From Monosiga brevicollis MX1 (taxonomy: Eukaryota > Opisthokonta > Choanoflagellata > Craspedida > Salpingoecidae), in assembly GCF_000002865.3 (NCBI RefSeq), contig NW_001865058.1, forward strand, positions 232,064 through 296,063: 64,000 bases of DNA, given 5' to 3'. The position numbers were made by a program, and so were the translations under genes. A model generated the notes under the pieces. The model was not told where the DNA came from. It did no database searches and saw only the letters and a program-made list of their open reading frames with translations. Positions 32,401 to 33,660 of the stretch are shown piece after piece (the first letter of the stretch is position 1; each line of letters starts with the position of its first letter).

Positions 32401-33660
32401 ACACCCGAGGCAACAACACCCGAGGCAACAACACCCGAGGCAACAACACCAGAGGCAACAACACCCAAGGCAACAACACCCGAAGCAAGCACGACGACTC
32501 CCGGCGTCACCATCACGTCAACAGAAGACGTTTTCACAAGTGAAGCCTGGGACGTGACCACAACACCATCCGAGCCGACCTCCACCTCTACAGCCTCTCC
32601 GTCCGATCTCGTTCCTAGTACCGCTTCTGCCGCTCCTTCTGCGGCGAGCTCGTCGGCTCCAGACGTTACCTCGACGACGAGCGAGGATACATCATATCTT
32701 TCTGTGCTGGTGGTGCGCATCACCGGTGTCACCCCGGCTGATATCCAAACCAGCACGTTGGTTACGGCTGTCGTTGATGCCGTGGGCACCATCTCTGGCA
32801 CTGATGGCCTGGTGACATCTTCGGACGTTCAGCTGATGGATGTACGTGAGGGATCTGCCATCGTGACGTATGGCGTCGAGGCCAATGCACGCAGCGTGCG
32901 ACGACTGACGTGTGCACTTTTGGAGCTCAGCGCTTCCAACGCCCTGTTGGATGAGTTGCAGCAACTCGAAGCCGAAACCTTTAACACATCGACTCTGACA
33001 CGGTCCACGATGCTGCCCTGTCAATTGTGCGACACAAGCATCTGTGCACCAACGACAACGACAACCACCACACCCATGGGCCGGCTCAACACCATCGACC
33101 CCGAGGCAGCACGCGGAAACGGCGAAAGCGACAAAAGCGCGGACACGGCCACGTCTGTGGGTGTACCCATTGGTGTGGTGCTGGCCGTCCTGCTTTTGAT
33201 TCTGCTCATTGCATTGTTCGTGCGCCGCCGTCGTGCGCCCGAGCAGCCATCGGGTGTGCCCACGCCTGTGTTGACAAGCAGCAACGGAGCCGCACTCGCC
33301 TACAGCAACCCTCTCTTTGCTGACGACAGTGGAGATGAGGAAAGCCAAACTGGCGTTGTTACGCCACCCAAGGAGCAGAGGACGCTCAACAACGGTGCTT
33401 ATGTCACCATGCCGGGCGCAGGTTCGCGGCAACTGAACAACGGGGCTTACGATACCGTGTCGCCGCGCGGTGCCCCAATCTCCAACAACATGTATCAGAC
33501 TGTGGTGGGTAATGCCGATCCTGAGTCGGGGTATATGCATGTGGAAGGCGTGGACGGCCCCGACTATGACACGATCGATTTTGATCACGCCTCATCCGAG
33601 GCCAATGCCAGTGGCTACCTTCAGGTCGATGCGCACCATGGTGGCGAGGCCTCGGCCTAA
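29491..33660 (+). CDS. PAN/mucin-type receptor with ITAM-like cytoplasmic tail
   Basis: Two exons (29491-30880, 31172-33660) give 1292 residues in exact phase. Start MKAMATAAAAAAAQLVMLLL is a signal peptide. Two PAN/Apple-like modules follow (TLEQCKALCTFDMHCRSFDY; MSAEACASQCLRDLACLSFDF), each in the CX3C..C spacing of PAN. Next are a Cys-rich CPPGHVSPTGYF...CPKGFVSPAGA repeat, beta-rich domains, two related Cys modules (PLCECTGETF...QWCYV and GPCSCEGYA...QPWCYV), a long Thr tract, and about 23 ATTPEATTPEA/ATTSKA pentamers (O-glycosylated stalk). A SEA-like domain and a TM helix (VGVPIGVVLAVLLLILLIALFV, about 33161-33225) precede RRRR. The tail has YVTM, YDTV, YQTV, YMHV, YDTI and YLQV. Binding of carbohydrate or protein by PAN and SH2-based signalling are inferred from the families. 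Confidence 0.87.
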   Translation: MKAMATAAAAAAAQLVMLLLIAGPAACRGQVQFSRMAQTLLARSNNGGEYYWAHDHQTLEQCKALCTFDMHCRSFDYQTNLADGGDCYLSFDNSSTGIVTSYPYFDLYDVNNAPSSLPFFTRTPQRYLINNNDGGRFENLGMSAEACASQCLRDLACLSFDFFSDSTGTRCYISYETAAQAGPGSLDYTATGSYYERLPLVASPSNPHCPPGHVSPTGYFNDAFPAGRNCVKCPNNTYAANAKAYCASCPKGFVSPAGADTVDACQPNTTIFSNATLSIGDRYVGRYSIVCGPAVESDGHLELTVISITASATSAAYIVRVQVELVDEDDFDVEFVQDITVDDVYATSIPIYIAARAGGINNVFRGTIAVGSSDDPTDQGLSFSGTLTQGTCPGYFSALRSCHLPHSGTPFEIGDQWVGSFECTAYYGLLPDTSHRRLDVIVTGISGNNFTVLVDVTSDSLEECTCQLADPITHTHTHTHTHTHTHTHTHTHTHTHTHTHTHTHTHTHTHTHTHTHTHTHTHTHTHTHTHIHTPHALASGPHPQLIIMLEPPPTVPSRYIARYRATGSFDPVTRKVVILPRGADAWISRPSNTVTADMVGTISEDNLLFTGQRDPNPLCECTGETFVRNGQTVGGYCSTTGRPTTSYPATQWCYVHPDCPDGEDDIEAGLRWMDCLATELCDAVELHRVCPDPGFDVGPCSCEGYADAAGAGATCQMYATGPIDHDMPISQPWCYVRESCNRAQAGKNSTWWATCDSAATTTTTTVATTTTTTTTTTTTTTTTASTTSTTTTTSSSSSEAPSSTTTTTTTTTTTTTTTTTTTTTTTTTAAATTTTTTTTATTTATTTTTTTTTTTTTTTTTTTTTNTATPTTTTTTTTSITALSTEEPTSTIKATTSKATTPEATTPEATTPEATTPEATTPEATTPEATTPEATTPEATTSKATTPEATTPEATTPEATTSKATTPEATTPEATTPEATTPEATTPEATTPKATTPEASTTTPGVTITSTEDVFTSEAWDVTTTPSEPTSTSTASPSDLVPSTASAAPSAASSSAPDVTSTTSEDTSYLSVLVVRITGVTPADIQTSTLVTAVVDAVGTISGTDGLVTSSDVQLMDVREGSAIVTYGVEANARSVRRLTCALLELSASNALLDELQQLEAETFNTSTLTRSTMLPCQLCDTSICAPTTTTTTTPMGRLNTIDPEAARGNGESDKSADTATSVGVPIGVVLAVLLLILLIALFVRRRRAPEQPSGVPTPVLTSSNGAALAYSNPLFADDSGDEESQTGVVTPPKEQRTLNNGAYVTMPGAGSRQLNNGAYDTVSPRGAPISNNMYQTVVGNADPESGYMHVEGVDGPDYDTIDFDHASSEANASGYLQVDAHHGGEASA
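30906..31076 (+). repeat. (CA)n microsatellite inside a frame-preserving intron
   Basis: About 85 CA units within the intron 30881-31171 of the PAN/mucin receptor. Donor GTACGTG and acceptor TTATATAG are good. Confidence 0.95.
31760..32490 (+). repeat. Coding ACN trinucleotide tract and 15-bp minisatellite
   Basis: 31760-32130 is dominated by ACA/ACC/ACT/ACG codons (Thr) with few interruptions. 32160-32490 is a 15-bp array encoding ATTPE with ATTSK variants. Together they form the mucin-like stalk. Codon variety in the first part argues for selection on Thr content rather than pure slippage; the second part is nearly uniform and probably length-variable. Confidence 0.9.

What the first reader, a model, noticed from the sequence alone, without database searches (positions are those of the whole stretch)
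33400..33627. ITAM-like and PI3K-type tyrosine motifs in a choanoflagellate mucin receptor tail
The tail has six Tyr motifs: YVTM (33400-33411), YDTV (33448), YQTV (33493), YMHV (33532), YDTI (33565) and YLQV (33616). YMHV and YDTI are seven residues apart, so they read Yxx(V)-x7-Yxx(I), the spacing of an immune ITAM with Val in one slot. YVTM fits the YxxM ligand of PI3K p85 SH2 domains. The first three follow a repeated NNGAY/NNMY frame, suggesting internal duplication. With PAN ectodomain and mucin stalk, this looks like a pre-animal phosphotyrosine receptor.
Basis: partly seen in the sequence, partly recalled or inferred. Interest (0 to 1): 0.85.

Follow-up and report, generated by a model that had tools for sequence, protein, structure and literature searches.

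The report
Choanoflagellate mucin receptor with tyrosine tail
A single-celled relative of animals encodes a mucin-like surface receptor whose inner tail carries an array of tyrosine docking motifs; it does not look like an immune ITAM, but it shares a SEA-like stalk module, and some tail motifs, with a few other genes of the same genome.

Summary
The six listed tyrosine motifs are real and correctly placed in a 1292-aa type I membrane protein of a choanoflagellate (very probably Monosiga brevicollis). Six of seven tail Tyr carrying a hydrophobic +3 residue exceeds chance (1 of 20,000 shuffles). The ITAM reading fails: the strict consensus is not met, a spacing hit is expected in 37% of random placements of the six motifs, no SH2-SH2-kinase gene was found, and neither of two related tails has the pair. 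No PI3K p85 gene was found over cut-off. A SHP-type phosphatase gene exists and two motifs fit an ITIM, but the two related tails have none. New here: a 115-aa juxtamembrane domain with three relatives in the genome (invariant Gly-Ser; confident SEA-like ferredoxin fold, GS in the b2-b3 turn), one of them beside kinase-domain exons. What recurs in two related tails is [F/Y]xNPx[F/Y] near the membrane and GY[L/M]. Best reading: a kinase-less docking receptor, phosphorylated by Src-type or receptor kinases, with one PTB/FERM-type and several SH2-type sites. Tail similarity is at motif level only; phosphorylation and binding are inferred.

The parts
29491..33660 (+). gene: ATG 29491, intron 30881-31171 (GT..AG, holds a (CA)n tract), stop TAA 33658-33660; 1292 aa
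   Evidence: splice sites inferred from GT/AG and frame, no transcript seen; the unspliced frame is also open
29491..29577 (+). signal-peptide-like N terminus (MKAMATAAAAAAAQLVMLLLIAGPAACRG)
   Evidence: read from sequence; no predictor run
29635..29814 (+). PAN/Apple domain 1
   Evidence: Pfam PF00024 whole protein 3e-14; place
29851..30081 (+). PAN/Apple domain 2
   Evidence: Pfam PF00024, second stretch
31759..32688 (+). Thr-rich mucin-like stalk with ATTPE repeats
   Evidence: read from translation
32689..33033 (+). juxtamembrane SEA-like domain, 115 aa
   Evidence: three relatives in genome; AlphaFold2 on 4 sequences pLDDT 82.5, pTM 0.79, b-a-b-b-a-b
32851..32856 (+). Gly-Ser codons, invariant in the four members, in the turn between strands 2 and 3
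   Evidence: cleavage is inferred by analogy with MUC1 GSVVV (PMC9564314)
33154..33222 (+). transmembrane helix SVGVPIGVVLAVLLLILLIALFV, then RRRR
   Evidence: hydropathy
33223..33657 (+). cytoplasmic tail, 145 aa, seven Tyr
33301..33318 (+).
   Evidence: NP at tail residue 29 as in FENPLY of the C44 relative
33385..33411 (+). LNNGAYVTM, first repeat copy
33433..33459 (+). LNNGAYDTV, second repeat copy (77% DNA identity over 30 nt)
33484..33504 (+). NNMYQTV
33526..33543 (+). SGYMHV: GY[LM] motif, also fits ITIM
33565..33576 (+). YDTI, Src-SH2-like pYxxI
   Evidence: phosphorylated RM2 with YEAI binds MbSrc1 SH2, competed by pYEEI (PMC3584944)
33610..33627 (+). SGYLQV: GY[LM] motif, also fits ITIM, 28 residues after SGYMHV

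Best explanation
The gene encodes a kinase-less type I receptor: two PAN domains, a Cys-rich region and a Thr-rich mucin stalk outside, a SEA-like domain next to the membrane, and a tail that works as a phosphotyrosine docking platform. The steps: (1) ligand or cell contact acts on the ectodomain, possibly through a SEA-like module that can come apart at Gly-Ser (inferred); (2) cytoplasmic Src-type or neighbouring receptor tyrosine kinases phosphorylate several YxxPhi sites (inferred); (3) SH2 proteins bind the GY[LM]xV and YDT[VI] sites, while YSNPLF holds a PTB- or FERM-type protein (inferred). It is a multi-site docking tail, not an ITAM.
For: Gene layout and Pfam PAN. YxxPhi excess, 1 of 20,000 shuffles. 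Genome holds 131 SH2, 150 kinase-model and 73 PTP places at the thresholds used. Juxtamembrane domain shared with three loci; two continue in frame into a transmembrane segment, the third has one in another frame, so with an assumed intron, next to kinase-domain pieces (Pfam PK_Tyr_Ser-Thr 3e-6 and 9e-7). Pairs of relatives not chosen by each other align at z 8.9 and 8.3 (the third pair 2.3). Related tails C44 and C29 hold [FY]xNPx[FY] near the membrane and three GY[LM] each. Two kinase tails carry GGYLRI and SGYLDV right after the kinase. A C40 kinase gene with a PTB domain (Pfam PID 3e-5) has YVDV, YLDV, YIEL, YMQI and SNPLF behind the kinase. M. brevicollis RTKB2 tail repeats are kinase substrates and bind MbSrc1 SH2 when phosphorylated (PMC3584944, passages and Results part 1).
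Against: Tail homology is not shown by alignment: window vs C44 reached in 41 of 1000 shuffles, vs C29 in 11 of 1000; BLASTP 0.11. YVTM, YDTV, YQTV, YDTI have no clear counterpart in the two relatives. [SG]GY[LMV]x[VI] is in the two kinase tails that suggested it but in 0 of the 20 fetched afterwards (2 of 22 in all, 0 in antisense). HMTK1's third PTB domain did not bind a Phe version of its NPxY ligand (PMC3082566), so NPLF is not a ligand of that domain as tested. The genome-wide pattern YxNP[LF]F is not enriched (13 vs 10 control). No other species was available.
Confidence: 0.52

Rival explanations
1. Sorting receptor: YxxPhi and [FY]xNPx[FY] are endocytic signals read by AP-2 mu and PTB/FERM adaptors, and phosphorylation is absent or merely switches uptake off.
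For: All six motifs fit YxxPhi; NPx[FY] recurs in the two related tails. In MUC1, YHPM is listed with AP2M1, AP1G and PIK3R1 as partners, and uptake depends on YHPM and YTNP (PMC5039420, passages).
Against: YxxPhi signals rarely come six to a tail (recalled). Tyr arrays of similar kind follow kinase domains in this genome, which suggests kinase substrates.
Confidence: 0.27
2. Inhibitory receptor: SGYMHV and SGYLQV are a tandem ITIM, 28 residues apart, that recruits a SHP-type tandem-SH2 phosphatase.
For: Both fit [SIVL]xYxx[ILV]; a pair 18-32 apart has P=0.003 in full shuffles, 0.084 with motifs kept. The genome has an SH2-SH2-PTP gene at C39:702484-700025 whose SH2 pieces hit PTPN11 first (E about 1e-30). 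PD-1 and BTLA motifs lie 25 residues apart (PMC8631942, one passage).
Against: Neither of two related tails has an ITIM; ITIM matches in 22 kinase-tail stretches are no more frequent than in antisense frames (19 vs 23); P=0.084 is not strong.
Confidence: 0.12
3. ITAM receptor: YMHV-x7-YDTI binds a Syk/ZAP-70-like tandem-SH2 kinase.
For: Spacing x7 is right; with V allowed such a pair is in only 1.3% of full shuffles.
Against: L/I rule fails (V in slot 1); 37% chance given the motifs; of 19 SH2 groups only one (C20) has a kinase place within 3 kb, and there the SH2 pieces follow the kinase; pair absent from two related tails; a table in PMC8662651 lists Syk under Chordata (passage).
Confidence: 0.03
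4. The Tyr repeats are a lineage-specific expansion without selected docking function.
For: No orthologue could be compared; LNNGAY is repeated; the patterns NNGAY and YxNP[LF]F are not enriched genome-wide.
Against: The two LNNGAY copies differ only by silent changes (3 silent, 0 replacement in six codons); YxxPhi excess.
Confidence: 0.06

Closest known systems
MUC1-type transmembrane mucins (MUC1 tail YHPM, YTNP, YEKV; SEA domain cut at GSVVV)
   Same: mucin stalk, SEA-like juxtamembrane domain with Gly-Ser in the b2-b3 turn, single transmembrane helix, tail with a YxxM, a YxNP and Yxx[VI] sites
   Different: likeness of layout and short motifs only, no homology tested or claimed for the tail; two PAN domains; Pfam SEA profile does not hit; MUC1 is said to have arisen in mammals (PMC9564314, passages), so this would be convergence
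M. brevicollis receptor tyrosine kinases with multi-Tyr tails (RTKB2 RM2 repeats; C53 and C49 kinases here)
   Same: Tyr arrays that can feed SH2 domains; GYL sites right after the kinase in two of 22 stretches; kinase-domain pieces at C56 lie next to the same juxtamembrane domain
   Different: no kinase domain here; a genome search with the tail found only itself, so no RM2-like match
LDLR/APP/integrin-type [FY]xNPx[YF] tails (recalled)
   Same: membrane-proximal YSNPLF
   Different: F in place of the terminal Tyr; nothing else compared
ITAM / ITIM immune receptors
   Same: tyrosine motifs with hydrophobic +3; spacing near the rule
   Different: L/I rule not met for ITAM; no tandem-SH2 kinase found; motifs absent from the two related tails

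Membership tests
ITAM | YxxL/I x6-8 YxxL/I | tested here: not met
   strict pattern false; first slot is V
ITAM | tandem-SH2 kinase (Syk/ZAP-70 architecture) in the genome | tested here: inconclusive
   none found among 19 SH2 groups, but only 135 of 686 kinase candidates were scored and introns can split SH2 domains
ITIM | [SIVL]xYxx[ILV] | tested here: met
   SGYMHV and SGYLQV
ITIM | present in related tails | tested here: not met
   0 of 2 related tails
ITIM | SHP-type phosphatase available | tested here: met
   SH2-SH2-PTP at C39
PI3K p85 ligand | YxxM | tested here: met
   YVTM; 14% of shuffles have one
PI3K p85 ligand | p85 iSH2 / p110 p85-binding domain in the genome | tested here: inconclusive
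   no iSH2 match over cut-off, best E 7e-4; no PF02192 match, but no control rang either
SEA domain | b-a-b-b-a-b ferredoxin-like fold | tested here: met
   AlphaFold2 with 4 sequences, pLDDT 82.5, pTM 0.79
SEA domain | closer to SEA structures than to other ferredoxin-like folds | tested here: inconclusive
SEA domain | Gly-Ser in the b2-b3 turn | tested here: met
   G55-S56 invariant in 4 of 4, between E47-53 and E57-65
SEA domain | Pfam SEA profile match | tested here: not met
   no SEA hit for the four members
SEA domain | self-cleavage | not testable with these tools
   needs expressed protein
PAN/Apple | Pfam PAN profile over cut-off | tested here: met
   PF00024 53 bits vs 21.4
[FY]xNPx[FY] PTB/FERM ligand | motif near the membrane, shared by relatives | tested here: met
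   window, C44 and C29 (3 of 3 tails compared)
[FY]xNPx[FY] PTB/FERM ligand | binding to a PTB or FERM domain | not testable with these tools
   HMTK1 PTB3 did not bind a Phe version of another NPxY peptide (PMC3082566)

The most novel reading that the evidence does not exclude
Choanoflagellates use a family of kinase-less surface receptors in which a SEA-like, possibly cleavable juxtamembrane module is joined to a two-class docking tail ([FY]xNPx[FY] for PTB/FERM proteins, GY[LM] sites for SH2 proteins), and the same module sits on a receptor kinase. This would be a pre-animal counterpart of shed, mucin-type phosphotyrosine receptors, evolved apart from MUC1 and from immune receptors.
Probability: 0.27. 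Interest if true: 0.75.

Novelty: new variant of a known kind. Interest (0 to 1): 0.46.

Why it matters
The choanoflagellate phosphotyrosine toolkit is known mainly from its kinases, phosphatases and SH2 proteins (my reading of the papers listed); which non-kinase receptors feed it seems little studied. A receptor that joins a SEA-like module to PTB-type and SH2-type docking motifs, with relatives in the same genome and one copy of the module beside kinase exons, gives concrete proteins and sites with which to test how docking receptors arose before animals.

Tried and rejected
ITAM, p85 and tandem-ITIM readings were tested and rejected or set low (see rivals). NNGAY as a genome-wide tail motif: 7 places vs 7 for the reversed control; the five places outside the window are not receptor tails. 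Pattern YxNP[LF]F: 13 places vs 10 control; of the 12 other places only L084 (TNFR-like Cys repeats, transmembrane helix, RYNNPLF) reads as a receptor tail. PAN genes: C35 and five stretches downstream of other PAN places showed no comparable tail in what was read; the genes run over introns, so this is not a survey. Viral contigs: no relative of the tail. PDB by sequence: no SEA hit for the domain alone or the 4-row profile. First AlphaFold2 job, without alignment, was poor (pLDDT 48.5). The profile test (window found at 5e-13, next best 2) is partly circular because the three relatives had been picked with the window domain; the unselected pairs are the fair test. E-values are inflated by the hydrophobic segment: many of its 29 rows match the transmembrane part only, and of the tails it pointed to only C44 and C29 were read (C29 cut at the end of the fetched stretch, no stop seen).

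Papers: PMC3584944 passages and part 1 of Results; PMC3082566, PMC8662651, PMC3507883, PMC8631942, PMC9564314 and PMC5039420 passages found by term only; all others search listings only. PMC2453073 (Manning 2008) is not held. Searches choanoflagellate + NPXY and choanoflagellate + SEA domain gave 12 and 2 papers, seen as listings only; choanoflagellate + SEA domain + mucin + autoproteolysis gave 0. I make no claim that this family is absent from print.

Full report
What is there. The frame encodes a 1292-aa protein: ATG 29491, one inferred intron 30881-31171 around a (CA)n tract, stop 33658-33660. Outside the membrane it has two PAN domains (Pfam PF00024, 3e-14), a Cys-rich region, and a Thr-rich stalk; then a 115-aa domain, a hydrophobic helix, RRRR, and a 145-aa tail with seven tyrosines. 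The window lies in a 39.5-Mb assembly with 131 SH2 places. One fetched kinase-tail stretch (L069) contains SEEVYGAVVD, the M. brevicollis RTKB2 peptide printed in PMC3082566, so the species is very probably M. brevicollis.

Is it more than chance? In 20,000 shuffles of the tail, six or more YxxPhi occurred once. With the YxxPhi rate of held ORFs as yardstick, P is 0.004. The ITAM claim is different: the strict L/I pattern is absent. With V allowed, a pair with x6-8 is in 1.3% of full shuffles, but in 37% if the six motifs are kept and placed at random, so the spacing adds little. The two LNNGAY copies differ only by three silent changes in six codons, which fits selection on the protein.

Partners. 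In the SH2 places I looked for tandem SH2 genes (131 SH2, 45 of 150 kinase, 39 of 73 PTP places) and then measured the 64 kinase places on the contigs with SH2 groups. The only group with a kinase within 3 kb is at C20, where the SH2 pieces follow the kinase, the reverse of the Syk order. Kinase scoring covered 135 of 686 candidates and introns hide domains, so this is not proof of absence; a table in PMC8662651 lists Syk under Chordata. One gene at C39 reads SH2-SH2-PTP; its SH2 pieces have PTPN11 (SHP-2) as first PDB hits. The ORF at C54:1873189 has two SH2, an SH3 and part of a PH domain, the layout of PLC-gamma; the catalytic part was only read by eye. No p85 iSH2 over cut-off and no p110 p85-binding domain were found, the latter without a positive control.

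The tails. The C44 relative has a 113-aa tail with FENPLY, KENPLY, NPDYMDL, GYLET, GGYLDV and AGYLDF; C29, found with it and read over 361 bases without reaching a stop, has FENPTY, FNPIY, PGYME, GGYLDL and NGYLKS. NP lies at tail residue 29 in both the window and C44, and at 21 in C29; GY[LM] occurs 2, 3 and 3 times, each unlikely by shuffling (fraction of 20,000 shuffles 0.0011, 0 and 0). The fuller form [SGN]GY[LM]x[VLI] is in the window twice and once in each relative. The ITAM pair and the ITIMs occur in the window alone (0 of 2 relatives). Whole-tail alignment does not show homology of the window tail with C44 (41 of 1000 shuffles) or C29 (11 of 1000); with the C40 kinase tail it is 0 of 1000, but that one was picked by eye from 22. 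So the shared tail features are motifs, and may be convergent.

Kinase tails. Two stretches downstream of kinase places, read first, hold GGYLRI and SGYLDV right after the kinase; of the 20 fetched afterwards none has [SG]GY[LMV]x[VI] (2 of 22 in sense, 0 in antisense frames). YxN is 27 vs 8 and YxxM 18 vs 9 in sense vs antisense, ITIM 19 vs 23 (same call). The C40 gene has a PTB domain before the kinase (Pfam PID) and YVDV, YLDV, YIEL, YMQI and SNPLF behind it. In a scan of 359 kb of held sequence for a helix, basic residues and a 50-320-aa tail, 3 ORFs passed, and all three have NPx[FY]; L084 was held because of the NPLF pattern itself, so only L026, held for its SH2 domain, with FDNPTF, SNPLY and SNPMY, is independent support.

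Mechanism. I think it most likely that the receptor has no enzyme of its own and serves as a docking platform: Src-type or receptor kinases phosphorylate the YxxPhi sites, SH2 proteins (SHP and PLC-gamma types seen here; MbSrc1 known from PMC3584944) bind them, and YSNPLF binds a PTB or FERM domain without phosphate. Shown: the anatomy, the excess of motifs, the shared domain, the shared motifs, the presence of candidate readers. Inferred: phosphorylation, binding, cleavage, signal. Against a simple PTB story, HMTK1's third PTB domain did not bind a Phe version of its NPxY ligand (PMC3082566). Endocytic sorting is the main rival, and the two can coexist as in MUC1, where YHPM and YTNP are tied to uptake and to signalling partners (PMC5039420).

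Novelty. The parts are known kinds; the combination of PAN ectodomain, mucin stalk, SEA-like module and a two-class docking tail in a choanoflagellate is a new variant as far as I could see. The likeness to MUC1 is one of layout, not descent.

Noticed in passing
window 34484-34901 (+): Next gene: small protein, 88 aa if two exons are joined (MSEEKQFKWQVKPGG...HNASGY), no Pfam match.
   Followed up: partly
window about 30905-31090: (CA)n tract of about 180 bases inside the inferred intron; the frame stays open through it as (HT)n, so an annotator could miss the intron.
   Followed up: partly
L025/L016, C39:700025-702484 (-): A SHP-1/2-type SH2-SH2-PTP gene in the choanoflagellate genome; its SH2 exon pieces hit PTPN11 at about 1e-30.
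   Followed up: partly
L026, C30:286855-290097: Membrane protein whose cytoplasmic tail holds an SH2 domain flanked by FDNPTF, SNPLY and SNPMY.
   Followed up: no
L084, C55:514469-517486: Receptor with TNFR-like Cys repeats (Pfam 1.7e-14) and RYNNPLF in its tail.
   Followed up: partly
L103/L106, C56:3405800-3407150 (-): Probable receptor kinase with the same SEA-like domain (introns assumed); an SH2 place lies about 3.5 kb downstream on the same strand.
   Followed up: partly
G000 C44:643649-644122 (-): A probable second copy of the SEA-like domain in the C44 gene (34% identity, E 1.4e-10, same 761-aa frame); not read.
   Followed up: no
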